From positions 1 to 64,000 of the forward strand of contig NZ_JAFKCU010000007.1 of the NCBI RefSeq assembly GCF_017254845.1: a stretch of 64,000 nt of DNA, read 5' to 3'. The DNA comes from Algoriphagus pacificus. GTDB lineage: Bacteria; Bacteroidota; Bacteroidia; Cytophagales; Cyclobacteriaceae. Positions within the stretch are counted from its first letter, which is position 1, and each line of letters opens with the position of its first letter. The position numbers and the translations under genes are program-made. The notes beneath the pieces were generated by a model. It was given only the letters and a program-made list of their open reading frames with translations, had not been told where the DNA came from and searched no databases. Shown here one piece after another: positions 2 through 63,809 of this stretch.

Positions 2-1465
2 AACAGTCTGGAGGTAATCGAAACGGCTTCCGCTTATCTGGAAGAAAACTACGGCAAGAAAAGACCTGTCTTCGGGGGACAGAAAACAGAATCTCTTCCT
101 GCAGCACAGCGTGCCTCACAGGCAGCATTGCTTGCTCCGGTACTACGCGGATTGGCTTCTTCCTATAAAAAAATGGTCGGTACTTTCACCGACACAGACG
201 TGGTCTTACAGTTCATCAATTCAAATGATCTGGGTAAGTTGGCTCCTATGGGAACTTCCTGTCCTGATCACTTCCTGCGTACCAAGATCTCTCCTTTGGT
301 TCTTGATATTCCAGCAGATATTGATCTTTCTGATCCAACTTCCCTGAAGGCTGATCTTGAAAAGGAATTCCAGGCTTATCGGGAGATGTATGCGGATTAT
401 TACGAAAAGCACAAGCATCCCAATTCCCCTGCCATGCGGGATCCCAATCCGGTGATCATTCTCTGGCCGGGAGTAGGGCTATTCTCCTTTGCCAAGGACA
501 AGCAGACTTCCCGAGTGGCCTCTGAGTTTTACATCAACGCCATCAACGTGATGCGTGGTGCTGAAGCGGTTTCTTCTTATGTCTCTTTGCCTTTGCAGGA
601 AGCTTTCAACATTGAATACTGGTTGCTCGAAGAAGCCAAGCTACAACGCATGCCTAAGGAAAAACCACTTTCAAGAAGAATAGCCCTGATCACGGGAAGT
701 GCCGGGGGAATCGGAAAAGGAATTGCAGAAAGATATATCCAGGAAGGAGCATGTGTGGTGGTCACTGACATCAATGCGGAGCGTCTGGCAGAAACTGAAG
801 CTGCCATGCAGAAAAAATACGGAAAGGATGTTTTCCTGGGGGTTACCTTGGACGTAACTGATCCGAAAAGTCTGAAGAAAGCCATGCAGGCAATCTGTCT
901 GAAATTCGGAGGACTGGACATCATCGTCAACAATGCAGGCATCTCCATCTCCAAGGCTTTTGAATCACATACCGAAGAAGATTGGTCCAAGCTCTTGGAT
1001 ATCCTGGTCAAAGGTCAGTTTGACGTTTCCCAGGCCGGGGTCAAGATCCTCAGACAGCAGGGACTCGGTGGAGACATCATCAACATCGTCAGCAAAAACG
1101 CTTTGGTCGCAGGGCCTAAAAACGTGGCTTATGGAACTGCCAAAGCAGCGCAACTCCACATGTCACGGCTTATGGCAGCCGAACTCGGAGAGGACAAGAT
1201 CCGCGTCAATGTGGTAAATCCCGATGCGGTCATCGAAAACTCCAACATCTGGGAAGGCGGATGGGCTGAAAACAGGGCCAAGGCTTATGGCATCGAGGTC
1301 AAGGACCTTCCTGCCTACTATGCCAACAGAACCCTGCTCAAAGAATCCGTCAAGACTTCAGATATCGCAGATGCTGCTTTCGCTTTCGTCTCCGGAATGC
1401 TTGACAAATCAACCGGAAACATGCTCAATGTCGACGGTGGACTCGCGGCAGCTTTCCCTAGATAG
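2..1465 (+). CDS. rhaEW: Bifunctional rhamnulose-1-phosphate aldolase / L-lactaldehyde dehydrogenase, 5'-truncated by the window
   Basis: The reading frame is open from the first bases, so the start lies upstream and about 487 C-terminal residues are visible. The first part is the end of a class II aldolase domain, including the HFLRTK metal-site region near nt 270. The second part, from about nt 665, is a short-chain dehydrogenase with the NAD motif TGSAGGIGKG, NNAGIS, and the catalytic serine and YGTAK motif (nt 1130-1144). This fusion is the known RhaE-RhaW type. It cleaves L-rhamnulose-1-phosphate to DHAP and L-lactaldehyde and oxidises the aldehyde to lactate in the cytoplasm. The downstream regulator, sugar kinase and lactate-oxidation genes on the same strand fit that chemistry. 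A related L-fuculose or other deoxysugar substrate cannot be excluded. Confidence 0.87.
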   Translation, partial: NSLEVIETASAYLEENYGKKRPVFGGQKTESLPAAQRASQAALLAPVLRGLASSYKKMVGTFTDTDVVLQFINSNDLGKLAPMGTSCPDHFLRTKISPLVLDIPADIDLSDPTSLKADLEKEFQAYREMYADYYEKHKHPNSPAMRDPNPVIILWPGVGLFSFAKDKQTSRVASEFYINAINVMRGAEAVSSYVSLPLQEAFNIEYWLLEEAKLQRMPKEKPLSRRIALITGSAGGIGKGIAERYIQEGACVVVTDINAERLAETEAAMQKKYGKDVFLGVTLDVTDPKSLKKAMQAICLKFGGLDIIVNNAGISISKAFESHTEEDWSKLLDILVKGQFDVSQAGVKILRQQGLGGDIINIVSKNALVAGPKNVAYGTAKAAQLHMSRLMAAELGEDKIRVNVVNPDAVIENSNIWEGGWAENRAKAYGIEVKDLPAYYANRTLLKESVKTSDIADAAFAFVSGMLDKSTGNMLNVDGGLAAAFPR

Positions 1466-49903: not shown

Positions 49904-49941
49904 AAAAAAGCTGAAACAATTCCTGTTTCAGCTTTTTTTTT
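49904..49941. terminator. Bidirectional terminator between Gfo/Idh and PorP/SprF genes
   Basis: The stem AAAAAGCTGAAAC / GTTTCAGCTTTTT with a short loop is followed by a long T run between convergent stops at 49884 and 49968. Confidence 0.88.
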
Positions 49942-49967: not shown

Positions 49968-51014
49968 TTAGAATTTTGGACAAGGGAGAATGGTATCTCG
50001 TCTATTTGGTTTTCCTTCGTATTTGTTTGGAAGGGTCCAAGACAAACTAAGCTCATGTGCTCCACCAGATTGAATTCCAAGCTGGGAAACCGTATAATCA
50101 AAGCTATATCCGATATTCAATCCGCTAAGTAAATTCACTCCTACCATCATCACAATAGCATCACGATTGCTTTGTTCTTCAACAGGTTTATAAGGAAGAC
50201 CTCTATACCAAAGGCCAAATACAATAGGTTCTACATAAAAATATGCTCCTACATCCAACTGCTCAAACGGCCCCTGTCTCTTATAATTTATAGTTGGAGT
50301 CAAATATCTCTGACGACGCATGTGCGTAAAATCCTGTCTCATACTTCCTTCGCCCAAGTCGAAACGATAGCCAGCATGCAAAGAGAACTTGGCTGGTAAT
50401 TTACTGACTCCATCTAAGAAAGATTGGTTAGGCTCGTTAACATGATGTGCTGATACCCCCACCCAAAAATCTTCGGTGAAAAACATGCCTCCTAAGGACA
50501 AGGAAAGCATATTCACAGGATCTCCAAGTCCAGCCAAATCAGTCCCTGGGAAAATCGGTCCAAAAGGATCATTGGGATTAATCTGATTTGCAAATACTAA
50601 ATTTTCATAGAAACCAATCTCTCTTCTGATATAAGAAGCTTGAAAACCAGGACGAAAATAGGCGTTGTCACTGATTTTTAATTCGTAAGAATATAAAGCA
50701 GAGATAGTGGTTGATCGCAATTTGGAAGCTCCCTCTGTGTCCTGCATAACCATTACACCGATGCCAGAGTTATAATTTGGTAAGTAAGTATCGTAGTATG
50801 CAGAGAAAGTCTTGAACTGCGCATCAATACTTGGCCACTGGTTGCGATAATTAAATCCAATACGTCCAGTTAATTCAGCCCCTGCCATCGCTGGATTTAG
50901 ATAAAGAGGGGCTGCATAATATTGGCTATATTGTGGGTCTTGCCCATAGGCATTAAACTGCAACAATAAAGTGCAGATTGAAAAAAAAACAATAAAAGCC
51001 AGAGACCGTAACAA
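49968..51014 (-). CDS. PorP/SprF-family type IX secretion outer-membrane protein
   Basis: A 348-residue protein with a Sec signal (LRSLAFIVFFSICTLLLQF) beginning at a TTG codon at 51014; no in-frame ATG precedes the signal. The mature N-terminus has the family hallmark QDPQYSQYYAAPLYLNPAMAG. The rest alternates beta strands and ends with an aromatic-poor tail. PorP/SprF proteins span the outer membrane and work with T9SS cargo bearing type-B sorting domains; in Flavobacterium SprF is needed for surface display of the giant adhesin SprB. The divergent gene 82 bases away encodes just such a giant cargo, so these two are a probable pair. Confidence 0.92.
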   Translation of the reverse strand: MLRSLAFIVFFSICTLLLQFNAYGQDPQYSQYYAAPLYLNPAMAGAELTGRIGFNYRNQWPSIDAQFKTFSAYYDTYLPNYNSGIGVMVMQDTEGASKLRSTTISALYSYELKISDNAYFRPGFQASYIRREIGFYENLVFANQINPNDPFGPIFPGTDLAGLGDPVNMLSLSLGGMFFTEDFWVGVSAHHVNEPNQSFLDGVSKLPAKFSLHAGYRFDLGEGSMRQDFTHMRRQRYLTPTINYKRQGPFEQLDVGAYFYVEPIVFGLWYRGLPYKPVEEQSNRDAIVMMVGVNLLSGLNIGYSFDYTVSQLGIQSGGAHELSLSWTLPNKYEGKPNRRDTILPCPKF

Positions 51015-51096
51015 GGTTTTGTTCGTTTATTTGAATATTCAGTTGGCTTTTAAAACGATTAACCTCTTTGGTTGTTTTAAAAGCAGTTCGAAAATT

Positions 51097-54000
51097 ATGA
51101 AAAGCAACCCTAAATCCATAAGGTTCAAGTATATTTTTACCCTATTAGCTCTATTTACACTTTTAGGAATAGAATCAAAAGTCTTTTCCCAAGGTTTCAA
51201 TGAAAATGAGTGGATTTTCGGAAGTTGCGACACTGGTGCCAGTAATTATTTGTCATTTGGCAAGGGTGGCTCACCAACGGTGCAATCTTTACCAAATACC
51301 GTGCTACTTGGTAAAAACAATAGCGCAATTGCAATTGATCCAATTACGGGACAGCCACTCTTTCAGACAAATGGGGAATTAGTCTACGATTTTAGCCAAG
51401 CCCCCATCGAAGGTTCAGCACCTGGCTTGAATGGAAATGTTGACAGCGCGCAACAAGTCGCAACAGGTTTTTTGGAATACGATCCGAACGGGAATAAATT
51501 ATTCTACATTTTTTACATCTCACTTGGCGGTGAACTTCAATATTCCCTGGTGGACATGAATGCTCCAGGTCAGGCAACTGGAAATGAAAGACCTTTGGGT
51601 GAAGTGATTTCCAAAGACATTAGCATGGGCAATGCTTCCGGAGCGCTACTTGTTGTGAAGAGTTCTTCTTCACCTTCTTATTTGATAAGTTTTAATGGAG
51701 GGAATTTAGTATCCCAAAGATTAGATGCCGGTGAGGGAAATTTCACCACCACAGACACTCAAAGTTTACCATTTATGCCTGAAAGAATCATTTTCAATGA
51801 GGAGACCGGCAAACTGATTTTAATTCCTGCAGACAGCAGTGACCCGATCACTGTGATGGATTTCAATACCGGAAGTGGAACCTTTAGTAACCCTACCCCA
51901 ATCAGCAATATTACTGGTTCTGGAAACTACGGTGGAGCAGATTTTAGTCCAGACGGAAGTTATATTTATTATTCTTTGGGAAATCAACTATTCCGAGTTC
52001 CTGCGGATAATTTATCTGCGGCTCCTGAAGAAATTCCTTTAACTGCTGGTTTGGAAGCGGTGTACGATGTGAAAGTTGGTCCGGATGGGAGCTTGTATTA
52101 TATCTACGAGGAAACAGCCGGAGGACCTCAGTTGATTGGAAGAGTCACTAATCCTGATGAACCGGATTTAAGTCTTTTTACTTTGGAAGAAGATCCATTT
52201 ATGGGTGCTGATTTTTGTGGGAGGATTTTCCCTGTTTTTGCTCCCAATGCTGATATCAACCCAAGCGTGGATTTCACTTGGGATCCAGAAATGCCCTGTG
52301 CAAACAATCCAGTTCAGTTAAATAGCACTGTCACTCCAGAAAATTACAGTCCAGCAAGCTATAGCTGGGAATTTAGCCCACCTCTTACCGATTCTGATGG
52401 CAATCCCATTGATGCGGATTACACACAACAGCACTTCTTGATTCCTGCTGATGCAGCACAAGGAACTGATATCACGGTAACTCTGACAGTTACATATGAA
52501 GATGGAGAAACCCAAACCTCCACCAAAACCATTCCTCTGACTGAAAACAACCTAGAAGCAAATTTCACTCCTTCAGACACTACTTTATGTATGACCTGTA
52601 TAGATATTGGGCCTCTTTTGATGGCACAAGCTGCGGGTCAGGATGGTGAAGCTCCTGATACTGGGGGAGGCTCCAATTACGAATATTTCTGGTCTAATTA
52701 TAGGGATGAAGGGTGGGGAACCAGACAAGAGAATGAAGTTTGTTTACCGGGTTTATATTGGGCTTTGGTTAGAGAACCAGGTTCATCTTGTTATGCCTAT
52801 GCAGAGATCAGAATCAAAATCTGGGACATGGATGATCAAAGCAATAACATCTGGTATTTTGGAGATGGGGCTGGGTTGGATTTCAATCCTGATCCAGATG
52901 ATCCTGATGCTCCTACTCCAAGACCGATCGCCAACAGACATCCACAAAATATCCCTGCAGGAACGACTACCATTTCGGACCAAACTGGCCAAGTACTATT
53001 TTTTACAGATGGGGCAACTGTATGGGACCTGAATGGTAATGTGATGGAAAATGGCGATTCCATTGGCGGAGATAATACTTCCAGCCAATCCGTACTTGCT
53101 GTCCCAGTTCCTGACGAACAAACGCTCTTTTATTTATTCACTACCCAACAATCTTCAAACGGCACGAATGAAGTCAGCTATTCTTTAGTTGATATCAAAG
53201 CCGAAAATCAAACTGGTGTTGGAAATGTAGTTACCAAAAATAATTTCCTTTTCAGCCCATCCACTGAGCATACCGCTGCTTTCAATGCAGGTGACACTAC
53301 TTGGATGATGTTCCATGAACTAGGAAACAATACGTTTAGAGCCTACCCAGTCTCTTCCTTGGGGATTGGACAACCTGTTTTAAGTTCTGTTGGAAGTAAT
53401 CACGGATTCAACTCAGGAGTTGGGGCGATGAAGTTCAATTCCGATGGGGACAAAGTGGCGGTTACTATTTCAGAAGGAGGATGTAACAAGCTGGAAATTT
53501 TCAACTTCGATCAAGATACCGGAGAAATGACAGAATATGCCCGGATTGATTTGGGGTGTGATGGAGATGTCTATGGTTTGGAATTTTCGGAAGATGGAGA
53601 TAAAGTATTGGTCTCCTTTAGAAATGGTGGACCTGGGATCCAGGAATTCAATATAAAACCTGTGGATAACGATGATCCAGATGCCGCAGTCTGCCCTTCT
53701 TGTTTCGATGGGGCAAGCACCAGAGCAGAAATTGAAGCTTGTATTAACAGTACCAAAAAGACAGTAAGTCAAACTTCAGGACTGGATTTAGGAGCTTTGC
53801 AAATAGGCCCTAACGGTCAGATTTATGTGGCTGTAGTTGGAGATAATAGGATAGGTCAAATCAATGTTGGAACAGGATGTAATTCTTCAAGCACTTTTAC
53901 TTTAGACGGAGTAGAACCAATGCCAGGAACATCCAATCTTGGTCTTCCCTCTTTTGTCCAGAATTCTGGAAGCTCAATTCCAGAGCCTGCACTTTCAGGG

Positions 54001-56604
54001 CCTCCGAGAATTTGTTTAGACCCGGACTTGGGAGGCGGAGCTCTTTTCGAAGGTGCTGGCGAGCCTGATATTGATAGTTATTTCTATACAATCACCGATG
54101 AAAATGGTGTAGTAGTGCTGGATAATTTTGGTGGACCAGGTGATCAGTTCCAAACCTATGAACATATCTTCACTGAACCTGGACTATATACTGTTGACCT
54201 AAGAGTTGATCGATGCGGAGATCCAACTTACTATGAAGCAAGTATGGAAGTACGGGTTGATGCTCCTCCAGTTTTAACGCTAGTTGATGATGTTACTTTA
54301 TGTTCGGGAGCACCAGTTACTTTGACAGCAATCGACGGATATGACCCAGCTGAAGGAATCTATGACTTTCAATGGACAAATGCTGCAGGTCAGGTTTTTG
54401 GAGATGAAAACTCAAATGAAATCACTGTTGAGGAGGAAAGCATTTACACTGTGACCGTTTCTTACAGACTTCCTGAAGGCCTTTCTGAAGAAGAAGCATT
54501 GCTTTATGAAACCTGTCCTTCGACTGCTGAGGTTTTCGTTGGTCCTGCATTTGAATTTGATTTGACCCAAACTTCAACAGAAGTTTGTTACGAGGAAACA
54601 ACGGTAGTTTTTGCTCCAAACACTCCTATTTCCGGCGAATGGTTTTATACATTGGATGGTGATCCTAACAGGACCTCTTTGGGAGTATTTTTCGAATTGG
54701 AATTATTCATCAATACACTTCCAGGTCCAGGCCAATATGAAATCATTTTTGTCACACAAGATCCAATTCTGGAAGGCTGTACTGTAGAGAAAAAGCTGGA
54801 CTTAATCGTAAATGAACTACCCATATTTACGGCTGTTCAAACAACTCCAGCCACTGATTGTAATTCGGCGGATGGATCTTTTGAAATTACCATGCAGGGT
54901 ACGGCGCAGACTTTAACAGTTTTGGAAACCGGAGAAACCTTCTCCAATATTTCTGCAGGCAATACCGTATCTGTAAGCAATTTGCTTCCTGGGGTGTATA
55001 CCATCGAAGCAGAAAACAGTTTTGGATGTCTATATACCGGGACAGTCACCATAGAAAACAGTAATCCACCGGCAGGTTTTGAATACACAGTTTCAACTCA
55101 AGATGAAGTCTGTAGTCCTTTGGGTGTAGAAAATGGGGTTCTTATCATAGATTTCACAACATCTCCTCAATCTGGAAGCTATACTGTAACAAGACAAGGG
55201 GACGGACAGGTTTTCACAGGAACATTTACAAACACCTCTCAAGTCTTGATAAATGTACCTTATGGTGAATATGCTGTGGAGATCCAAGATCCAACCAATT
55301 GTGCGATTCCTGATCCTGACATTTATACGATCAATCAGAAGTTCCAAGTGGTATTCTCTGTGCCATCAGATTTTACCGCCTGCGAAAGTTTCACCTTTAC
55401 ACCAGATTCTCCAGAGACGCTTAATTATACGGTAACCAATATTTCCGGAGGTACTGTAGCTCCTAATGATGATGGAAGTTTTACAATAACCCAGAGTGGC
55501 ACCTATACAGTATTAGCAGAAGATCCGACGGGAGAGGATTGCCCGAAGGAGCTAGAAATGATCGCAAACATTACCCAGCCTATTGACTTTGAGGTTTCAG
55601 AACCAATCATTGATTGTCAAGTAGGTGTCAGGTATGAAGCCATTTTGAATAACGCCCTTCCTGAAGATGTTATTTTCCTATGGAAAGATGAGGGAGGAAT
55701 CATTGTCGGTCGCTCACAAACATTTACTCCAAGCAGATCCGGAAATTATACTTTAGAGGTTCAGCCAATCGCTGGAGGTCTTTGCCCAGTTGATAAAAAA
55801 CCATTTGAGGCAGTAGTCTTGACCGAAAGTCTTGAAGTGGCACTCGATGTGGTTCCTTTCTGTGCGGATCAAACCAGCACCACCATTACAGTTGTTGCTG
55901 ATTTGAGTAATGTGGCAGAAATTGAATGGTATTCTGTTCAGGGAAATACGCGAACAAGGATTCCTGCTTTTGACAATCTTCCTATCATTGAAGTATCTCA
56001 AGAAGGCACCTATGAAGTTTTATTGAGAAGTGCTGCAGGATGTGATTTGGGAAGAGCAAATGGAGTAGTTGCCAAATCTGTTATTATTCCACCTGTGATA
56101 CCTACTTCAATTACGATCTGTGCTTTAGAAGGAGTAACCGAGAGTATAGATCCTGGAGATTACGATAATTATTCTTGGCAGTTAAATGGAGAGGAAATCT
56201 CTCAGGACGCAATATTCACTCCTACCTTGCCAGGGATTTATACGCTTGTCGTTTCTGACAACCTGGGCTGCGAATACATTGCTACCATGGAGGTTATTGA
56301 AGATTGCGCTCTTAAAATTTCTTTTCCAAATGGAGTTGTCTTAGATGATCCAACAAGAAATTTCATTTTGTATGCCAATGAATACATAGACTATGTAGAG
56401 GTTTATATTTACAACCGATGGGGTGAATTGATCTTCTATTGTAATCACGAAAATGTGGAACCGGCTCAGGCATTTTGCCCTTGGGATGGACAATTGAATG
56501 GAAAATTTGTGCCAAACGGAACATATGCAGTCGTTGTGAAGTTGACTAGTGAAGACCAAAATATCACTCAAAAAATCACCAAAGCGATTACAGTAATTCA
56601 ATAA
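51097..56604 (+). CDS. Giant secreted T9SS cargo protein with two propellers, Ig/PKD modules and type-B CTD
   Basis: A 1835-residue protein from the ATG at 51097 (MKSNPKSIRFKYIFTLLALF, Sec signal); an in-frame ATG at 50971 adds a cysteine-containing segment before the signal and is rejected. Two beta-propeller-like regions open it, about residues 30-390 (NEWIFGSCDTGASNYLSF) and 580-960 (NNIWYFGDGAGLDF), split by a PKD-like domain. From about residue 964 come repeated Ig/PKD modules, including one copy of the 240-residue module shared with the next giant genes (nt about 55350-56060). The last 98 residues are a T9SS type-B sorting domain (EVYIYNRWGELIFYC, CPWDGQLNGKFVPNGTY). It is exported to the surface, probably through the divergent PorP/SprF partner, as an adhesin or gliding component. 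Confidence 0.9.
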   Translation: MKSNPKSIRFKYIFTLLALFTLLGIESKVFSQGFNENEWIFGSCDTGASNYLSFGKGGSPTVQSLPNTVLLGKNNSAIAIDPITGQPLFQTNGELVYDFSQAPIEGSAPGLNGNVDSAQQVATGFLEYDPNGNKLFYIFYISLGGELQYSLVDMNAPGQATGNERPLGEVISKDISMGNASGALLVVKSSSSPSYLISFNGGNLVSQRLDAGEGNFTTTDTQSLPFMPERIIFNEETGKLILIPADSSDPITVMDFNTGSGTFSNPTPISNITGSGNYGGADFSPDGSYIYYSLGNQLFRVPADNLSAAPEEIPLTAGLEAVYDVKVGPDGSLYYIYEETAGGPQLIGRVTNPDEPDLSLFTLEEDPFMGADFCGRIFPVFAPNADINPSVDFTWDPEMPCANNPVQLNSTVTPENYSPASYSWEFSPPLTDSDGNPIDADYTQQHFLIPADAAQGTDITVTLTVTYEDGETQTSTKTIPLTENNLEANFTPSDTTLCMTCIDIGPLLMAQAAGQDGEAPDTGGGSNYEYFWSNYRDEGWGTRQENEVCLPGLYWALVREPGSSCYAYAEIRIKIWDMDDQSNNIWYFGDGAGLDFNPDPDDPDAPTPRPIANRHPQNIPAGTTTISDQTGQVLFFTDGATVWDLNGNVMENGDSIGGDNTSSQSVLAVPVPDEQTLFYLFTTQQSSNGTNEVSYSLVDIKAENQTGVGNVVTKNNFLFSPSTEHTAAFNAGDTTWMMFHELGNNTFRAYPVSSLGIGQPVLSSVGSNHGFNSGVGAMKFNSDGDKVAVTISEGGCNKLEIFNFDQDTGEMTEYARIDLGCDGDVYGLEFSEDGDKVLVSFRNGGPGIQEFNIKPVDNDDPDAAVCPSCFDGASTRAEIEACINSTKKTVSQTSGLDLGALQIGPNGQIYVAVVGDNRIGQINVGTGCNSSSTFTLDGVEPMPGTSNLGLPSFVQNSGSSIPEPALSGPPRICLDPDLGGGALFEGAGEPDIDSYFYTITDENGVVVLDNFGGPGDQFQTYEHIFTEPGLYTVDLRVDRCGDPTYYEASMEVRVDAPPVLTLVDDVTLCSGAPVTLTAIDGYDPAEGIYDFQWTNAAGQVFGDENSNEITVEEESIYTVTVSYRLPEGLSEEEALLYETCPSTAEVFVGPAFEFDLTQTSTEVCYEETTVVFAPNTPISGEWFYTLDGDPNRTSLGVFFELELFINTLPGPGQYEIIFVTQDPILEGCTVEKKLDLIVNELPIFTAVQTTPATDCNSADGSFEITMQGTAQTLTVLETGETFSNISAGNTVSVSNLLPGVYTIEAENSFGCLYTGTVTIENSNPPAGFEYTVSTQDEVCSPLGVENGVLIIDFTTSPQSGSYTVTRQGDGQVFTGTFTNTSQVLINVPYGEYAVEIQDPTNCAIPDPDIYTINQKFQVVFSVPSDFTACESFTFTPDSPETLNYTVTNISGGTVAPNDDGSFTITQSGTYTVLAEDPTGEDCPKELEMIANITQPIDFEVSEPIIDCQVGVRYEAILNNALPEDVIFLWKDEGGIIVGRSQTFTPSRSGNYTLEVQPIAGGLCPVDKKPFEAVVLTESLEVALDVVPFCADQTSTTITVVADLSNVAEIEWYSVQGNTRTRIPAFDNLPIIEVSQEGTYEVLLRSAAGCDLGRANGVVAKSVIIPPVIPTSITICALEGVTESIDPGDYDNYSWQLNGEEISQDAIFTPTLPGIYTLVVSDNLGCEYIATMEVIEDCALKISFPNGVVLDDPTRNFILYANEYIDYVEVYIYNRWGELIFYCNHENVEPAQAFCPWDGQLNGKFVPNGTYAVVVKLTSEDQNITQKITKAITVIQ

Positions 56605-56605
56605 C

Positions 56606-57358
56606 ATGTTAATACTTATTTCCCCTGCTAAGACTTTAGACTACAGCGTCCCCACATTAAAAGACCACACATTACCAGATTTTCAAACTGACGCACATTC
56701 TTTAGTTAGGATCATGAAAAAGAAATCTGCCAAGGAAATTTCCAGTTTGATGAATATCAGTGATTCTCTTGCCACGCTGAATGAGAAGCGCTACAAGACT
56801 TTTCAAAAGGAATTCAATTTTGACAATTCCAAACAGGCATTGTTAGCATTCAAAGGAGATGTATACACCAAAATAGAAGTTGAGGAGTATACGGAACATG
56901 ATTTTGACTTTGCACAAAATCATTTGAGAATACTTTCAGGTTTATATGGACTTCTTAAGCCTTTGGACTTGATCCAACCTTATCGCCTTGAAATGGGAAC
57001 CAAGCTAGAGAATAAAAAAGGAAAGAATCTTTATGAATTTTGGGATAAGAAAATAGCAAAGGCAATAAATCAAGTAGCAGAAGGTAAACCTATTGTTAAT
57101 CTAGCTTCGCAAGAATATTTCAAAGCTGTTGATCAAAAAAGCCTCAAGTCAAAAGTGATCACGATCCACTTCAAGGAATTTAAAGATGACAGTTACCAAG
57201 TTGTAGGCTTTTTTGCAAAACAGGCAAGAGGTATGATGACTAATTATGCAATTAAAAACAGGATTACAGATCCATTGCAACTCAAAGCCTTTAATCAGGA
57301 ACGTTATGAATTTTCTGAGAATCTGAGTTCAGAATTTGATTGGGTATTTGTTAGGTAA
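56606..57358 (+). CDS. yaaA: YaaA-family peroxide stress / DUF328 protein
   Basis: A 250-residue cytoplasmic protein of normal family length. Signatures: MLILISPAKTLDYSVPT at the start, GDVYTKIEVEEYTEHDFDFA, RILSGLYGLLKPLDLIQPYRLEMG, NLASQEYFKAV, and VVGFFAKQARGMMTNYAIKNR. E. coli YaaA lowers free iron and oxidative DNA damage under hydrogen peroxide. The start codon is one base after the stop of the giant T9SS gene, so translation may be coupled, and a terminator follows. This is an unexpected neighbour for a secreted adhesin. Confidence 0.95.
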   Translation: MLILISPAKTLDYSVPTLKDHTLPDFQTDAHSLVRIMKKKSAKEISSLMNISDSLATLNEKRYKTFQKEFNFDNSKQALLAFKGDVYTKIEVEEYTEHDFDFAQNHLRILSGLYGLLKPLDLIQPYRLEMGTKLENKKGKNLYEFWDKKIAKAINQVAEGKPIVNLASQEYFKAVDQKSLKSKVITIHFKEFKDDSYQVVGFFAKQARGMMTNYAIKNRITDPLQLKAFNQERYEFSENLSSEFDWVFVR

Positions 57359-57379
57359 ATAATCTAATTTTAAGTTGTT

Positions 57380-57412
57380 CCAGAGGCTGAAATCAGTCTC
57401 TGGATTTTTTTT
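57380..57412 (+). terminator. Rho-independent terminator after yaaA
   Basis: The stem CCAGAGGCTG / CAGTCTCTGG, with one G-T pair and a four-base loop, is followed by a run of eight T residues, 22 bases after the yaaA stop. It separates the first giant gene and yaaA from the second giant gene. Confidence 0.85.
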
Positions 57413-57468
57413 GGCTTGTATTAAGTAGTAGCTTAGAGGTCTGATTCTCACTCTTTTTATATAAGAAA

Positions 57469-60400
57469 TTGGATTTCGTCAGAAAAAAATCAATACGAGT
57501 TACTATTCCCCTAATGCTTCTTGCAATAGTAAGTATTGGTTTGTGCTTTTCTTATGTTATAGCGAAAAACCCAGAAAACAGAGACTTTTCAAACAGCAAA
57601 TTAGCAGACCCTGAACTCATTGGGCCTGAAAAACTATGCATGGTGTTCGGAAGTGTTATTGGTGAATTCTCCGGTGGGGGCAATCCAATTGAAGATGTTT
57701 ATTCTTGGGTAATCAAAGATGCTTCGGGTACAAAAGTGTTTTCAAGAAACGGAGGATATCCAACGATTACTTATACCTTTTCTAAACCTGGTAATTATTC
57801 AATTGAACTTCAAGTCAACCGAGGCATAGAATTTTTCCCTTTACTCAAAAAGAACATATCGGTCCTAAATTCTCCAGAAAGTAAACTAAATCCGAATTAT
57901 CAAATTTGTGGAAATGATCCATTGTCTCTAACAGCAATTGATAATTCTGACCCTGAGACACCCTTATTTACTTTTGAATGGCGGGATGAAAATGACCAAA
58001 TCATTGGAAATTCAAACACAATAAATATTTCTACTCCTGGAACATATTCTGTAGAGTATTATATTTTGAATTCTCTTGGAGAAAAAGACTGTACAAGAAC
58101 ATTAACAACAACAATTGTTGATTCATCTGATTTTGAAGTTCTAAGTGATCAAGATATTTTATGTCCTAATCAAACTGTCAATTTTTATTCAGACTCAGGA
58201 ATTATTGGAGATTGGTATTACCAAAAAGTAGGCACATCAGATAAAATCTTTATTGAAACAAATTCACAAATAATTATCAACCCAAATGTCAATTTGGTGG
58301 AGCCAGGAGAATATGAAATTATCTTAGAAGTAACTAATGATGACGTTTCTGGTTGTGTTAATAGTAAATCCAAAGTTTTAACCTACTATCCACTACCAGA
58401 TTTTACTGTATTAACACCTATAGCTTCTAGTGGATGCAATGTTCTTGATGGAAAAATTAGAATCCAAGCGATTACTGACTTAGACTATGTGTATATAGAA
58501 GGGACTTTTTATCAAACACCTTCAATTAAAGCAGGAGAAATTTTTGAAATACCCAGCTTAGAATCAGGAGCTTACAACTTAATTGCTGTTTTAGGAAATT
58601 GTATAAATTCATATGCTTCTGTTGTTCCACTTTCAAATCCCCCAAGTGATTTAGAGTATCAATTGATTGATGATTTTGGAGAATCTTGCTCAGAAACAGG
58701 TAAGTTGAATGGAGGCGTTTCATTGAATTTCATTAACGGTAATCAAGATGGGTACTACCGCGTTTTAAATGAAAAAGGAGGTACTTTTACAAGCGATAGT
58801 TTTTTAAATCAAGACACCATTCCTATCTCTCTCCCAGGAGGACGTTTTGTGATTGAAGTATTTAATCTTGATAGTTGTAATGTTCCAAAAAAAGAATTCA
58901 TTGAAATCCCTGGAAAAGATCAAGTCTCTTTTATAATTCCCTCAGAGCTTTCTATTTGCCAATCCTTTGATTTGATCCCTGAAACCTCTGAAGATTTGGA
59001 ATTTACATTAACCAAACCAGATGGTAGTGTGGAAATCAAACTAGCAGGAGATGGTTTTACTTTGGATCAAGCGGGCACCCACATTCTTCTTGGGAAAACA
59101 AGAACAGCAACAGATTTTTGTCCAACATTAAAGGAATTCAATGTTAAACTAGTTGATCCTGTTGAATTTGAACCAAGGCTTGTCCAGGAAAACTGTTTTG
59201 GTACCCGAACATTCGAAGCAAACATTTTTGGGAGAGATCCCTCAACTGTCATTTTTACTTGGTATAATGAATTAGATGAAATTGTTGGAAGAGGGCAATA
59301 TTTATTCCCAACTTCCCTCGGTGAATTTAAACTAGATGTTCAACCAGCAAATAGCGCTGCCTGTCCGATCCCTCCCAAAACCTTTCTGATTGAGGAACCA
59401 ATTCTTGAAGTTGATGTGACACTTACAAGCACTAAACTCTGCGAATTGGGACCAGGGGCAGTTCTTAATTTAGAAAGCACATTTCCTGATGAGATCACTG
59501 ATATCAATTGGAGGAGGTACGATGCTTCGGGAGCAATAGAAAATCTGGATCAATTTAAAGATCTCAAAGAAATTACAGTTTTTGATGATGGCGTTTATGA
59601 GGCTTCGGTATTCAGTATTATCCCAGAAATCGGGAAAGATTGTGAACTGGGAAGAAACTCGATTGAATTAAATTTCACTTTAGATCGAGTTGAATTTACA
59701 ATTCCTGATTCTCTTTCTATCTGTGAAACATTTGATATCATTCCTGAAACTACACAGCCGCTGCTATTTGAACTGACTCAACCGGATGGATCTATTGTAC
59801 AAAAGAATGCTGGAGAGCCCTTTACACTAGATCAAAATGGAATCTATAGCCTCTATGGATATGACCCAGAAGTAAGCTCTCCAAATTGCCCGGAAATCAA
59901 AGAATTTTATGTTCAGGTTAACCAGCCTATCCCATTTGAACCCGTTTTATTTAGTGAAGATTGTAATGGTGTCAAAGTCTATCAAGCAAAACTAACCGGA
60001 GCAACAGCTGCCGACGCAAACATTTCTTGGTACGACCCAAATGGAACGCTTGTCGGAACAGATGAATTCTTAACCTTAGATAATGTTTTTGGAACTTATG
60101 CTTTAGAAGTACAGCCAAAAAACAGTGAGCGGTGTGATTTATCACCGATGGAATTTGATGTTCCAGAACCAATTTTTAATGTAGATGTAAGCCTAATAGC
60201 AGCGGCTTTATGTCCTGATGCACCTGATGCAGCTATCTCTATTGAAACAGATTTTGATAAAGTAACCTTTATCGAATGGTGGTTTACGGACCTCAATGGA
60301 AACCAAACAGAATTGACCAACCAAAAAAATAAACCAGAGATTTTAGCAACTCAAGAAGGTACTTATGAAGCAAGAGTTTTTAATAATGTTCCTTGTTTGA

Positions 60401-60960
60401 TAGGTTCTGATCTAGTTTTACTTACTAGAAGTATGGATCAGGTTCGGCCTATTGTTGAGGAAAGTTATCAGGTATGCCCTCGCTATGAAATTGCTCCTAA
60501 CATTAACCCTGGAGATTTTGCAGCCTACGAATGGTACCACGAAGACAAATTGGTTTCGACTAGTGCAGCCTATAAGCCTTTGCTTGTTGGAAATTTTGAA
60601 TTGATTGTTTACAGTGCTGAAGGATGCGCGTATTCTACAACTTTTGAGACATTGGAAGAATGCGAGCTGAAAGTGGTATTCCCGAATGCTATTGAGCTTG
60701 ATAATCCGGATAAGAACTTTTTAATCTATACAAATTACCTAGTAGATGAACTTGAACTATGGATCTTTAATCAGTGGGGTCAATTGATCTACCATTGTAA
60801 AAACACAGAGCTGATAGATGAGGAATCTACCTGTGCTTGGGATGGCACTCTAAATGGGGAAAAAATACCCAATGGGGCCTATTCTATTCGAGTAAACTAT
60901 AGAAATTATGCTAAAAACATCAATGAAGAATACCTAGGATCATTGATGGTTATCGAATAG
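57469..60960 (+). CDS. Giant secreted T9SS cargo protein 2, with internal tandem duplication
   Basis: A 1163-residue protein. It starts at a TTG (57469) directly before a Sec-type segment (VTIPLMLLAIVSIGLCFSYV). The N-terminal domain (GPEKLCMVFGSVIGEFSGGG) matches residues about 964 onward of the first giant protein and the start of the third. It carries two copies of a module of about 250 residues: copy A about nt 58921-59660 (SELSICQSFDLIPET) and copy B about 59689-60410 (DSLSICETFDIIPET). The last 100 residues are a type-B sorting domain (LWIFNQWGQLIYHC, CAWDGTLNGEKIPNGAY). Surface-exported by the T9SS. Its size suggests a filament or adhesin; no enzyme motif is seen. Confidence 0.9.
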   Translation: MDFVRKKSIRVTIPLMLLAIVSIGLCFSYVIAKNPENRDFSNSKLADPELIGPEKLCMVFGSVIGEFSGGGNPIEDVYSWVIKDASGTKVFSRNGGYPTITYTFSKPGNYSIELQVNRGIEFFPLLKKNISVLNSPESKLNPNYQICGNDPLSLTAIDNSDPETPLFTFEWRDENDQIIGNSNTINISTPGTYSVEYYILNSLGEKDCTRTLTTTIVDSSDFEVLSDQDILCPNQTVNFYSDSGIIGDWYYQKVGTSDKIFIETNSQIIINPNVNLVEPGEYEIILEVTNDDVSGCVNSKSKVLTYYPLPDFTVLTPIASSGCNVLDGKIRIQAITDLDYVYIEGTFYQTPSIKAGEIFEIPSLESGAYNLIAVLGNCINSYASVVPLSNPPSDLEYQLIDDFGESCSETGKLNGGVSLNFINGNQDGYYRVLNEKGGTFTSDSFLNQDTIPISLPGGRFVIEVFNLDSCNVPKKEFIEIPGKDQVSFIIPSELSICQSFDLIPETSEDLEFTLTKPDGSVEIKLAGDGFTLDQAGTHILLGKTRTATDFCPTLKEFNVKLVDPVEFEPRLVQENCFGTRTFEANIFGRDPSTVIFTWYNELDEIVGRGQYLFPTSLGEFKLDVQPANSAACPIPPKTFLIEEPILEVDVTLTSTKLCELGPGAVLNLESTFPDEITDINWRRYDASGAIENLDQFKDLKEITVFDDGVYEASVFSIIPEIGKDCELGRNSIELNFTLDRVEFTIPDSLSICETFDIIPETTQPLLFELTQPDGSIVQKNAGEPFTLDQNGIYSLYGYDPEVSSPNCPEIKEFYVQVNQPIPFEPVLFSEDCNGVKVYQAKLTGATAADANISWYDPNGTLVGTDEFLTLDNVFGTYALEVQPKNSERCDLSPMEFDVPEPIFNVDVSLIAAALCPDAPDAAISIETDFDKVTFIEWWFTDLNGNQTELTNQKNKPEILATQEGTYEARVFNNVPCLIGSDLVLLTRSMDQVRPIVEESYQVCPRYEIAPNINPGDFAAYEWYHEDKLVSTSAAYKPLLVGNFELIVYSAEGCAYSTTFETLEECELKVVFPNAIELDNPDKNFLIYTNYLVDELELWIFNQWGQLIYHCKNTELIDEESTCAWDGTLNGEKIPNGAYSIRVNYRNYAKNINEEYLGSLMVIE

Positions 60961-61073
60961 CAAGATTTTTAAGACTACCTTTTTCTTTGGAATATTTTTT
61001 GCCTGCTTAGCACAGAATAAAATTGTAATGGCAAAAGCGCAATTTTTGCCCCCACCCTAAAAGAAATAAACCC

Positions 61074-63809
61074 TTGTGTGCTAAGACTCAATTTCCTGAT
61101 TGGAAGATTGGGGTCCTCTTCGTTTGGATTGTTTTGTTTTGCTGCCAAGCTTCATTTGCAGCAGAGCTGATTTCATTCGAAAGAAATTTAAACCTCCTTT
61201 CTGAAGAATATGCGGACCTGCAATTGGATGGTCCTGAAAACCTATGCATGGTTGCTGGAGGAGTATTAGGCACATTCAATGCCGGTGGTGAACCAGGAGA
61301 TGTCTATGAATGGACAGTGACTAGAGTTCCTTCAGGAGAAATTCTAGAGCAGAAGTCAAGTGGCCAGTTAGAAACATTCAAATTTTATTTTTCAGAAGTT
61401 GGGGATTACAATGTCAATCTAAAGGTAAGGCGCGGAACAGATGCTAATTTTTACGAAGAAAACAAACCCGTTCGTGTTGAAAAGGGCCCTGATTTAGCCC
61501 TTCTGCCTGATTATTTACTTTGCGCTGGTTCTACTACATTGTTAACAGCCTTAGACCCAAATACTCCAAATTTATCTGATTATGATATTACTTGGTACGC
61601 ACTAGACAATGATGGAGAACGTGTTGAATTAGGGAAAGGAAATGAATATGAAACCTATAATGCTGGATACCATATTGTTGAGTTATTTAAAACCAATGCA
61701 GATGGAAGTCAGGCATGTTTAATTACCGGTTCTACCTTTGTAGGCCCTCCTATTGATTTCCAAATTATTCCTTCATCCACGACTATTTGTGAAGGGGAAT
61801 CTATTCAGATTGGTTTAGACACTCCACTTTCTGGTGAATGGTTTATTCAGAAAGATTTTACGGGTGTGAGAAGTTCTGCAGGAGAAGGTTTTGAGATTGA
61901 ATTTAACTCTAGCGAATTATCAGGCCCTGGACTTTATCTTGTTACATTTCAAACAACGAATGAAGATTTTCCAGACTGTATCTCAGAAAGGATAATTGGT
62001 TTTGAATTGAAAGAATCTCCTTCTGCTACTACTCAGATTTTAGCACAACCTAGTGATTGCTCAGCATCAAATGGAAGCTTTCAACTGACTTTAGACACAG
62101 ATGTAGACGCACTTTATATCCCTGAATTAAACATTGTAGAAGGCCCTTCAGCTTCAGGAACTTTAAAGACCTTTTCCAATCTTTTACCTCAGGTATATTC
62201 CATTGTATTGGAGAAAGATGGTTGCCAAACAACAAGCTTACTAAGTATAGATGCGGCCCAGTCTCCTACGCAACTTTCACCTGTTTACACCATAATTTCT
62301 GAAAAATGTAATGATAATGGAGTGGATCCAGGATCGATTACCCTTGATTTTGGGACTGCAATCACAAATGGCAAATACAGAATATTGACAGAAGGAAGAG
62401 GAGAAATTCAATCTGGCGCCATTCCCGATTCAGGCTCAGTAACAGTTAATCTTTCGAATGGAAACTACCTTTTTGAAGCTATTGTAGGCGATTGTACCTA
62501 TCCTATAGAGGCGTTTGAAATAATAGACGCACCGCAGGTTAGTTTTACCATTCCGACGGAGTTGAATATCTGCGAGACTTTTGAACTGATTCCAGATACA
62601 GGTCAAGATTTGATATTTACATTGACTTTCCCTGATGGCTCCACCCAAGTGATTGAGTCCGGAGATTCTTATACTTTAGTAGATGCTGGATCCTATTCCA
62701 TTTTAGGAGAAACCAAAGACCCTAGTTCTCCGCTTTGCGCCAGAACTATTGCCTTTACAGCTACCTATTCAACAAACATCACTTTTGCTCCGGTTTTGGC
62801 AGTAGAAAAGTGCTTTGATCCCATCAAATACGAAATTGAGCTCACAGGAATCCCATTAGAAGAGGCAAGTATTCGTTGGTATAATGACCAAGGTAAAATT
62901 GTAGGAAGAGGAGCTGAATTTTACCCTACCAACTTAGGATTCTATTCCCTTCAAGTTCAGCCTTTAAAAAGTGGTTATTGCCCAGTGGAACCAGTTTCGT
63001 TTGAAGTAGTTCCTCAGATCGTAGCCGTACCGATGGAATTAGAAGCAACCAAACTTTGTCCAAGTCCAAGTATAGGATTAGTGACGCTGGCTACTGATGA
63101 AGAAGAAGTCTTCAATACAGAATGGATTTATTACGATTCATTAAATAATCGAACTGAACTGGCCCAGTTTAATGGGCAATTTGAAATTGAAGTAGATTTA
63201 GCTGGAACCTATGAGGCCATCGCTTACAACGAATTGGGCTGTGAAATCGGTAGAGGATTGGTAGAAGTTGAAGCAAGTGAATTTACTACTCCTCCTGCTG
63301 TTGAAGATTCATATGCATATTGTACGGTAGAAAACAATAGGATTCCAGCAATCGATCCAGGAGAATATGCTACTTATGAATGGTATTTTGAGGACCAGCT
63401 TGTCTCTACTGCTTCAACTTATAAACCTGAACAAGTCGGAAATTATCTTCTGGTAGTAACTACCGAAGATGGTTGTGAATTCACCAAGGAGTTTACCACT
63501 TATGATGCTTGTAAATTTAATGTTGTCTATCCCAATGCTATGATTCTTGGGAATCCAGATAAAGACTTCAGAGTCATCTTGAGCGAAGGCGTGAATGAAG
63601 CGGAATTATTTGTCTTGAATAGGCAAGGAGCATTGATATATCATGACCTTACTTCTGAAATACCAGTTGAGTCACCTGTATTGCAGTGGGATGGAAAAGT
63701 AGGAGATCGGTTCATACCTGAAGGCACCTACGTCTTGATTTTACTTTTAAGAAATGAAGAATTTGGTTTTGAGGACAAGCTAACCAGCTCACTTTTAGTG
63801 TTACAGTAA
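61074..63809 (+). CDS. Giant secreted T9SS cargo protein 3
   Basis: A 911-residue protein from a TTG at 61074, followed by a hydrophobic Sec signal (IGVLFVWIVLFCCQASFA). The domain order is the same as in protein 2 but with one copy of the shared module (about nt 62539-63256; TELNICETFELIPDT). N-terminal GPENLCMVAGGVLGTFNAGG matches the N-terminal domain of protein 2. The C-terminus is a type-B sorting domain, more divergent than the others (LFVLNRQGALIYHD, WDGKVGDRFIPEGTYVL), lacking the usual Trp-Gly of NRWG. Probably secreted by T9SS with the other two. It stands 113 bases after protein 2. Confidence 0.88.
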   Translation: MCAKTQFPDWKIGVLFVWIVLFCCQASFAAELISFERNLNLLSEEYADLQLDGPENLCMVAGGVLGTFNAGGEPGDVYEWTVTRVPSGEILEQKSSGQLETFKFYFSEVGDYNVNLKVRRGTDANFYEENKPVRVEKGPDLALLPDYLLCAGSTTLLTALDPNTPNLSDYDITWYALDNDGERVELGKGNEYETYNAGYHIVELFKTNADGSQACLITGSTFVGPPIDFQIIPSSTTICEGESIQIGLDTPLSGEWFIQKDFTGVRSSAGEGFEIEFNSSELSGPGLYLVTFQTTNEDFPDCISERIIGFELKESPSATTQILAQPSDCSASNGSFQLTLDTDVDALYIPELNIVEGPSASGTLKTFSNLLPQVYSIVLEKDGCQTTSLLSIDAAQSPTQLSPVYTIISEKCNDNGVDPGSITLDFGTAITNGKYRILTEGRGEIQSGAIPDSGSVTVNLSNGNYLFEAIVGDCTYPIEAFEIIDAPQVSFTIPTELNICETFELIPDTGQDLIFTLTFPDGSTQVIESGDSYTLVDAGSYSILGETKDPSSPLCARTIAFTATYSTNITFAPVLAVEKCFDPIKYEIELTGIPLEEASIRWYNDQGKIVGRGAEFYPTNLGFYSLQVQPLKSGYCPVEPVSFEVVPQIVAVPMELEATKLCPSPSIGLVTLATDEEEVFNTEWIYYDSLNNRTELAQFNGQFEIEVDLAGTYEAIAYNELGCEIGRGLVEVEASEFTTPPAVEDSYAYCTVENNRIPAIDPGEYATYEWYFEDQLVSTASTYKPEQVGNYLLVVTTEDGCEFTKEFTTYDACKFNVVYPNAMILGNPDKDFRVILSEGVNEAELFVLNRQGALIYHDLTSEIPVESPVLQWDGKVGDRFIPEGTYVLILLLRNEEFGFEDKLTSSLLVLQ

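What the first reader, a model, noticed from the sequence alone, without database searches (positions are those of the whole stretch)
49968..63809. SprF-like protein with three giant T9SS paralogs formed by truncation and module duplication
The second and third giant proteins correspond to about the C-terminal half (residue 964 on) of the first, 1835-residue protein. The N-terminal domain with GPE(K/N)LCMV...GG, the 250-residue module with the (S/D/T)xLxICxxFxxIP pattern, a pre-CTD domain with ATYEWY/AAYEWY, and the type-B sorting domain all recur in order. Protein 2 has one extra module, which accounts for its length over protein 3 (1163 against 911). The divergent PorP/SprF gene next to protein 1 is the expected export partner. 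Such an array, with propellers only in the first member, looks like a surface filament or adhesin system that I cannot match to a described one.
Basis: partly seen in the sequence, partly recalled or inferred. Interest (0 to 1): 0.72.

Follow-up and report, generated by a model that had tools for sequence, protein, structure and literature searches.

The report
Surface protein array with swapped tips
A bacterium related to Algoriphagus carries three related giant proteins, probably on its cell surface, beside the gene for a likely exporter, and the outer half of one of them is swapped between species by recombination, which hints at a variable recognition or attachment surface.

Summary
In detail: sprF (49968-51014, -) is divergent from p1 (1835 aa); two headless paralogs, p2 (1163 aa) and p3 (911 aa), follow, collinear with p1 from about residue 960. 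The extra length of p2 is a second 250-aa module. In the family, yaaA follows p1 in 45 of 45 loci and sprF faces p1 in 35 of 35 with visible flank; sprF also faces 11 of 12 more distant p1 homologues. So SprF-p1 is an old pair and fits the published type-B cargo/PorP-SprF shuttle scheme. The surprise is p2: its N-terminal half falls into deeply diverged alleles (down to 34% identity within the genus, against at least 64% for the p1 head) that contradict relationships given by neighbouring regions (AU p 6.8e-8 and 5.7e-17), with mosaic breakpoints just after the signal peptide in the clearest cases. Recombination is not confined to p2: p1 shows it too, with shallower alleles. All 40 p3 orthologs read lack the tryptophan of NRWG in the sorting domain. 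Function was not tested.

The parts
49968..51014 (-). sprF: PorP/SprF-family outer-membrane shuttle/anchor, 348 aa
   Evidence: PF11751 238.8 bits (cut-off 22.3), TIGR03519 258.6 (cut-off 90.55)
49904..49938 (.). bidirectional terminator-like hairpin between the upstream oxidoreductase gene and sprF
   Evidence: consensus match; 9 terminator-like sites found against 12.1 expected from shuffles, so not significant as a class
51097..56604 (+). p1: 1835-aa type-B T9SS cargo with conserved N-terminal head (residues ~40-963), Ig/PKD-like region A (966-1405), module B (1417-1676), CTD region (1680-1834)
   Evidence: 46-86% identity to 19 family orthologs
51097..53985 (+). p1 head, possibly tandem beta-propellers (W[IY]FG motifs at residues 39 and 586)
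   Evidence: weak PD40/WD40 matches, 2ojh at E 0.0076; residues ~590-963 match in many genomes of the order
56606..57358 (+). yaaA, starts 1 nt after the p1 stop; conserved next to p1
   Evidence: PF03883 299.4 bits; next to p1 in 45 of 45 family loci and 50 of 50 genus loci with p1 (the two sets overlap)
57379..57404 (+). intrinsic-terminator-like hairpin plus T run ending p1-yaaA
   Evidence: (z -4.44, 0 of 200 shuffles as stable)
57469..60960 (+). p2: 1163-aa headless paralog with two modules B
   Evidence: CHU_C 30.1 bits
57616..58887 (+). p2 region A (residues 50-473), the most variable part, exchanged between species
57733..59307 (+). segment (residues 89-613) of this window's p2 that matches a more distant species (L057) better than its close relative (L112)
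   Evidence: walk statistic 137 against a maximum of 45 in 2000 permutations
58921..59673 (+). p2 module B1 (residues 485-735)
59686..60477 (+). p2 module B2 (residues 740-1003)
60493..60954 (+). p2 pre-CTD and type-B CTD (residues 1009-1162)
61074..63809 (+). p3: 911-aa headless paralog with one module B and a diverged CTD
   Evidence: NRQG in place of NRWG
61224..62504 (+). p3 region A (residues 51-477)
62535..63323 (+). p3 module B (residues 488-750)
63342..63803 (+). p3 pre-CTD and diverged CTD region (residues 757-910)

Best explanation
This is a T9SS type-B surface-display locus. Shown by sequence: SprF and p1 are an old, divergently transcribed pair; p2 and p3 are collinear with the C-terminal half of p1 and sit downstream of p1-yaaA; p2 alleles are mosaics in the genus. 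Inferred: the three proteins are exported by Sec and then the T9SS with the C-terminus as signal and anchor, p1 held by SprF, so that the N-terminus faces outward. p1 is the more constant member with a possible propeller head. p2 and p3 lack the head and present a row of Ig/PKD-like domains. The outward half of p2 is replaced as a block by homologous recombination between species (in the clearest cases from just after the signal peptide to near or inside the second module), while its CTD follows the host lineage. The result is a surface protein with a constant anchor and a variable tip, used for attachment or recognition of a changing partner (substrate, neighbour cell, phage or grazer).
For: SprF-p1 synteny. 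Domain order: two modules in 32 of 32 long paralogs, one in 27 of 27 p3 (p2 and p3 were sorted mainly by length, so this mostly shows that no intermediate forms exist). Trees: p1 and p2 one clade each for region A; p2 B1 and B2 one clade each for module B. Genus medians: SprF 84, YaaA 74, p1 head 73, p1 CTD region 76, p2 A 42, p2 CTD region 63. Sisters L116/L140: p1 head 95, p2 A 45, p2 CTD 92, while L116/L136 (p1 head 87) have p2 A 83. Mosaic walks. AU rejection of two groups of relatives for p2 A and none for YaaA, p1 CTD, p2 CTD. In 9 pairs of the same allele class with measurable dS, p2 A has dN/dS 0.05-0.11, so the alleles are maintained, not decaying. Type B cargo/PorP-SprF pairing: PMC12618676, PMC9143113 (named sections read).
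Against: Recombination is not private to p2: under one rule 24 of 47 p2, 16 of 50 p1 and 6 of 39 p3 show a long mosaic segment, and L145/L149 seem to have exchanged the p1 C-half. PHI is low for p2 (0 of 300 permutations as low) but also for p1 (2 of 300) and YaaA (5 of 300). p2 A classes mostly follow the p1-head tree (16 changes, 12 the least possible, 28.6 for shuffled labels; 7 of 13 classes are single clades). p3 A is about as variable as p2 A over the genus (median 45 vs 42). No structure could be predicted, so 'outward tip' rests on the C-terminal anchor rule. p1-p2-p3 CTD identities (27-38%) are below the >44% at which one shuttle was seen to serve three cargoes in F. johnsoniae. The genomes are one per species, so within-species polymorphism was not seen.
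Confidence: 0.6

Rival explanations
1. The p2 alleles persist because p2 is a target of phages or grazers: variation is escape at a surface receptor, and the protein's own task (adhesion) needs no variation.
For: Block replacement of a presumably exposed region with conserved anchor and purifying selection inside classes; p2 or p3 can be lost altogether (p2 absent in 3 of 51, p3 in 11 of 51 genus loci), as expected of a costly receptor.
Against: No phage link was searched for; p1, presumably also exposed, is more conserved.
Confidence: 0.25
2. Hidden paralogy: ancestors held several p2 and p3 genes, and different species kept different ones; no selection for diversity is needed.
For: One relative has two p2 and two p3 in a row (L063, L090); p3 differences span the whole gene (L116/L142 25-56% in 60-aa steps) and p3 A rejects two groups of relatives.
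Against: In p2 the N-half and CTD of the same gene give different relatives with sharp breakpoints, which loss alone cannot give; the window's genome showed no spare p2 copy.
Confidence: 0.2
3. Self/kin recognition: p2 tips bind like tips on neighbours, as TraA does in myxobacteria.
For: Many discrete alleles across species (23 classes at 60% single linkage among 48 p2) at one locus with a constant anchor; a kind of polymorphism also reported for TraA (PMC6372800, abstract).
Against: Homology to TraA was not tested; no social behaviour is known from these calls; variation is measured between species, not within.
Confidence: 0.12
4. SprB-like gliding adhesins: the array moves on the cell surface and drives gliding.
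For: No PorE-like gene among the neighbours scanned; absence of a linked porE goes with mobile cargo in F. johnsoniae (PMC12618676 and PMC9143113, discussions).
Against: GldJ reaches only 110 bits against a cut-off of 458.2 in this genome; none of p1-p3 is highly repetitive, as SprB is said to be (PMC9143113, discussion).
Confidence: 0.1

Closest known systems
T9SS type-B CTD cargo with cognate PorP/SprF shuttle (SprB/SprF, Fjoh_3952/Fjoh_3951, PG1035/PorP)
   Same: CHU_C/type-B C-terminus (p1, p2), large surface-type protein next to a PorP/SprF gene
   Different: Divergent rather than downstream SprF; three paralogous cargoes with one local shuttle; yaaA in between; p3 CTD lacks the NRWG tryptophan
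Fjoh_1677, one orphan shuttle serving three cargoes (PMC12618676)
   Same: One PorP/SprF may serve several cargoes
   Different: There the shuttle gene is not directly beside a cargo gene and the CTDs share >44% identity; here the cargoes sit in one array and share 27-38%
Allelic exchange of surface proteins in Porphyromonas gingivalis (PMC5266723, abstract and section list seen)
   Same: Variants of surface proteins, among them Kgp, form a mosaic unrelated to the genome phylogeny
   Different: Within one species and in proteinase, fimbrial and other proteins; here between species, in a type-B array with a more constant sister protein
TraA of myxobacteria (PMC6372800, abstract and section list seen)
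   Same: One polymorphic surface locus with many recognition types
   Different: No sequence relation tested; recognition role not shown here

Membership tests
PorP/SprF family | PF11751 / TIGR03519 match over the whole length | tested here: met
   238.8 bits (cut-off 22.3) and 258.6 bits (cut-off 90.55)
T9SS type-B cargo (p1, p2) | C-terminal CHU_C (PF13585) above cut-off | tested here: met
   p1 30.9 and p2 30.1 against 27
T9SS type-B cargo (p1, p2) | TIGR04131 above cut-off | tested here: not met
   p1 22.1, p2 20.2 against 35; 27.5 and 24.8, still under it, in the whole-genome search
T9SS type-B cargo (p3) | CHU_C above cut-off and NRWG motif | tested here: not met
   17.0 against 27; TIGR04131 not listed; W of NRWG in 0 of 40 p3, against 50 of 50 p1 and 48 of 48 p2. 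p3 is filed as a homologue of the cargo, not as a proven type-B member
T9SS type-B cargo | adjacent porP/sprF gene | tested here: met
   for p1: 35 of 35 family loci with visible flank; for p2 and p3 it is only in the same array
T9SS type-B cargo | secretion that depends on the cognate shuttle | not testable with these tools
   needs deletion and secretion assay
SprB-type gliding adhesin | gliding machinery (GldJ) in the genome | tested here: inconclusive
   partial matches, best 110 bits against cut-off 458.2; other gld genes not searched
PorE-anchored static type-B complex | PorE-like gene in the operon | tested here: not met
   neighbours scanned are GFO_IDH_MocA, PhyH, ThuA, YaaA, MFS, apiosidase-like and OMP_b-brl_2 genes
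TraA-like recognition receptor | same-allele binding between cells | not tested
   bench test proposed

The most novel reading that the evidence does not exclude
p2 is a polymorphic cell-cell recognition receptor of Bacteroidota: a T9SS-exported protein whose outer half is one of many alleles shuffled between species, on a constant anchor, with p1 and SprF as the fixed platform.
Probability: 0.12. Interest if true: 0.85.

Novelty: new variant of a known kind. Interest (0 to 1): 0.5.

Why it matters
In the two T9SS papers read, type-B cargo is studied in Flavobacterium johnsoniae and Porphyromonas gingivalis, and what the cargo touches is largely open. This locus offers a natural experiment: a more constant member (p1) and a variable member (p2) of one array. 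Exchanging natural p2 alleles in one strain would show what the variable part touches. It also offers a test of how many cargoes one shuttle can serve and whether the NRWG tryptophan is needed, since p3 lacks it in all 40 orthologs read.

Tried and rejected
Considered and set aside. A filament: no test was possible and nothing in the domain hits suggests it. A polymorphic toxin with variable N-terminus: the variable half still aligns along its length with invariant cysteines and glycines in 27 rows, so no swap to an unrelated enzyme. Relaxed constraint: dN/dS inside classes is low. Silent donor cassettes: none seen in the window's genome. A special role for yaaA: it is fixed after p1 in the family set but was not found in the 12 distant loci (tblastn for two of them); a search for papers holding 'YaaA' and 'type IX secretion' gave one paper, not read. 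Promoter scan: as many sites as in shuffles, nothing concluded. PHI as sole evidence was not used, because p1 and YaaA also come out low. The mosaic triplets were picked after seeing the identity table; searches are the wider runs. One search searched many donors per locus without correction and gave many tiny segments, also in p1 (37 of 50 beat the permutations, p2 33 of 47, p3 24 of 39, YaaA 11 of 50), so the long-segment rule is quoted; it too picks the best donor without correction.

L131 has no p1; 48 p2 and 40 p3 remain, 47 of the 48 p2 with p1. Weak hits (single matches of about 1e-12 to 1e-21) were not followed.
Full report
WHAT IS THERE. The window lies in a 5.28-Mb genome in 50 contigs (contig C48); the 12 named loci found with p3 are all Algoriphagus. 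sprF (49968-51014, -) faces p1 (51097-56604, +; 1835 aa from ATG; a longer GTG start is possible). yaaA (56606-57358) starts one base after the p1 stop and is followed by a strong hairpin with a T run (57379-57404). p2 (57469-60960, 1163 aa) and p3 (61074-63809, 911 aa) follow, each from a TTG start with a hydrophobic N-terminus that looks like a signal peptide (by eye). Downstream is an MFS transporter.

ANATOMY. Profile segments: region A, about 430 aa, Ig/PKD-like, p1 966-1405, p2 50-473, p3 51-477; module B, about 250 aa, p1 1417-1676, p2 485-735 and 740-1003, p3 488-750; CTD region, p1 1680-1834, p2 1009-1162, p3 757-910. p1 alone has a head of about 960 aa. Pfam gives CHU_C above cut-off in p1 and p2, and PKD-type domains above cut-off in p2 and p3 (below it in p1). 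Among 27 aligned p2, p3 and p1 C-halves CHU_C matched 22 at E up to 0.001. The head may be two beta-propellers, but every profile match to it in the window's p1 is below cut-off or weak.

DISTRIBUTION AND ORDER. A p3 query matched 69 of 245 family genomes (E up to 1e-10; at most three candidates scored in each). Of 47 loci read, 45 hold p1 and all 45 have yaaA next to it; sprF is divergent in all 35 whose flank is visible (one cut by the locus edge; L048 and L057 are one assembly; recount). In the stretches read, some loci carry p1-yaaA only (L074, L076, L078, L089, and L085 of this genus), others p1-yaaA plus one 880-950-aa paralog ('px': L068, L071-L073, L075, L077, L082), others p2, p3 or both. 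In the genus, read 51 loci: p1 in 50, yaaA after it in 50 of 50, sprF in 49 (L045 begins inside p1), p2 in 48, p3 in 40. Farther out, 12 loci were read: a p1 homologue (26-30% identity) stands divergent to a SprF homologue in 11; in the twelfth (L154) 2 kb upstream of p1 hold no SprF match. No yaaA was found in the 12; one (L158) has, two genes downstream of p1, a 1068-aa frame whose end resembles the p2 CTD (25% over p2 880-1144). So SprF-p1 is the old unit, and the headless paralogs look later. px groups with p1 and p2 with p3 in the module B tree (97) and px with p1 in the region A tree (100), so headless paralogs may have arisen twice downstream of yaaA; but the roots are midpoint roots, p3 is not one clade in either tree, and in the A tree five p3 of this genus join p1-px with weak support (47). 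The two modules of p2 form one clade each (96 and 99), an old single duplication.

THE SURPRISE: p2 ALLELES. Between the window and A. iocasae (L044) the p1 regions are 75-91% identical, the p2 CTD region 83%, but p2 region A 38%. DNA identity to L044 falls to 48-55% over roughly 57700-59200 and returns to 69-78% from 59500 to the end of p2. Over the genus the medians are SprF 84.0, YaaA 74.1, p1 head 72.8, p1 A 68.2, p1 B 63.3, p1 CTD 76.0, p2 A 42.0, p2 B1 53.0, p2 B2 46.4, p2 CTD 63.4, p3 A 45.0, p3 B 51.0, p3 CTD 55.2. Of 14 pairs with p1 heads at least 93% identical, 3 have p2 A at 45-53% (L117/L121, L116/L140, L112/L045), the other 11 at 78-99%. L116 and L140 differ at p2 A (45%), yet L116 is 83% identical there to L136 and L140 80% to L142, both more distant by p1 head. 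In 60-aa steps L116 matches L136 at 75-88% over residues 61-780 and L140 at 92-95% from about residue 960.

TESTS. In two-parent walks the L116 p2 segment 54-818 beats 2000 permutations (495 against at most 372), L140 53-917 (652 against 568), the window 89-613 (137 against 45); the same three triplets in p1 give 8 against permutation maxima of 11, 12 and 18. Two more p2 triplets were clear (95 against 32, 76 against 30), and one (window, L112, L045) was weak (230 against 233). p2 A rejects {L116, L140} (p 6.8e-8) and {window, L112, L045} (p 5.7e-17) but not {L117, L121} (p 0.35). On the p1-head tree {L116, L140} has 99 and {window, L112, L045, L113} 87. YaaA, p1 CTD and p2 CTD reject neither of the first two groups. 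p3 A recovers both yet rejects {L116, L140, L142} (6e-64) and {window, L112, L045, L113} (3e-70); p3 differences span the whole gene, so p3 looks replaced whole or drawn from old paralogs. The 13 p2 A classes with more than one member need 16 changes on the p1-head tree, 12 being the least and 28.6 the mean for shuffled labels: classes mostly follow the tree, and six of them break it. dN/dS for p2 A is 0.05-0.11 in the 9 same-class pairs where it could be measured. Against a p2-only story: with one rule for all (segment of at least 150 aa, beats 300 permutations, flanks favour the nearest relative) 24 of 47 p2, 16 of 50 p1 and 6 of 39 p3 qualify, and PHI gives z -3.4 for p2, -2.3 for p1, -2.2 for YaaA, -0.5 for p3 and -0.6 for SprF. 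What sets p2 apart is the depth of the alleles that it exchanges within an otherwise lineage-true gene.

SORTING DOMAINS. The W of NRWG is kept in 50 of 50 p1 and 48 of 48 p2 and in 0 of 40 p3 (26 Q). That NRWG belongs to the five motifs shown to be needed for SprB secretion is my inference; the text read does not spell the motifs. So SprF is the likely shuttle of p1, an open question for p2, and doubtful for p3.

MECHANISM. Shown by sequence: old SprF-p1 pair, headless paralogs, exchange of diverged p2 alleles. From the literature: type-B cargo needs a PorP/SprF protein for secretion and seems to stay bound to it at the cell surface (PMC12618676, PMC9143113). Inferred: the N-terminus faces out, and the variable half of p2 is the contact surface. 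Which partner drives the variation is not known.

LITERATURE. Read: PMC12618676 (abstract, introduction, first of three parts of the results, two further results sections, discussion, passages), PMC9143113 (abstract, discussion), PMC5266723 and PMC6372800 (abstract and section list). Searches for a described variable type-B array or T9SS cargo under balancing selection (20 of 27 papers listed, 12 of 21 listed, none, 7 listed) showed none by title and abstract start, apart from P. gingivalis allelic exchange; the library lacks most subscription journals, so this is not proof of absence. One search (Algoriphagus, gliding, type IX secretion) listed three papers, none on this array by title; not read.

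Noticed in passing
56606-57358: yaaA is tightly coupled to the surface gene p1 (start -1 to +10 nt from its stop in the 25 of 45 loci where the script could measure it), though YaaA is known as an intracellular peroxide-stress protein (recalled); no reason is known.
   Followed up: partly
G000:C1:415735-416592 and 448793-449650 (L001, L002): Two PorP/SprF hits with the same score (283.8 bits) and length 33 kb apart, beside open frames of 8906 and 1772 aa with type-B ends; the fetched loci around them are not identical. Perhaps a duplicated shuttle with two cargoes, one very large.
   Followed up: partly
L057:16854-18095: An M48 (CAAX-protease-like) gene follows sprF in the six relatives printed (L047, L056, L057, L059, L072, L074; Pfam run for L057); in the window an oxidoreductase gene stands there instead.
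   Followed up: partly
L119 and L087: p2 and p3 have dS 0.05-0.14 where the p1 head has 0.47: the p2-p3 block seems to have passed between the two species recently.
   Followed up: no
L068, L071-L073, L075, L082: In these six loci with 'px', p1 is shorter (1673-1766 aa) and its module B is partial (5) or not found (L082).
   Followed up: partly
51097-53985: The second half of the p1 head (about residues 590-963) also matches open frames of about 370-530 aa in many genomes of the order.
   Followed up: no
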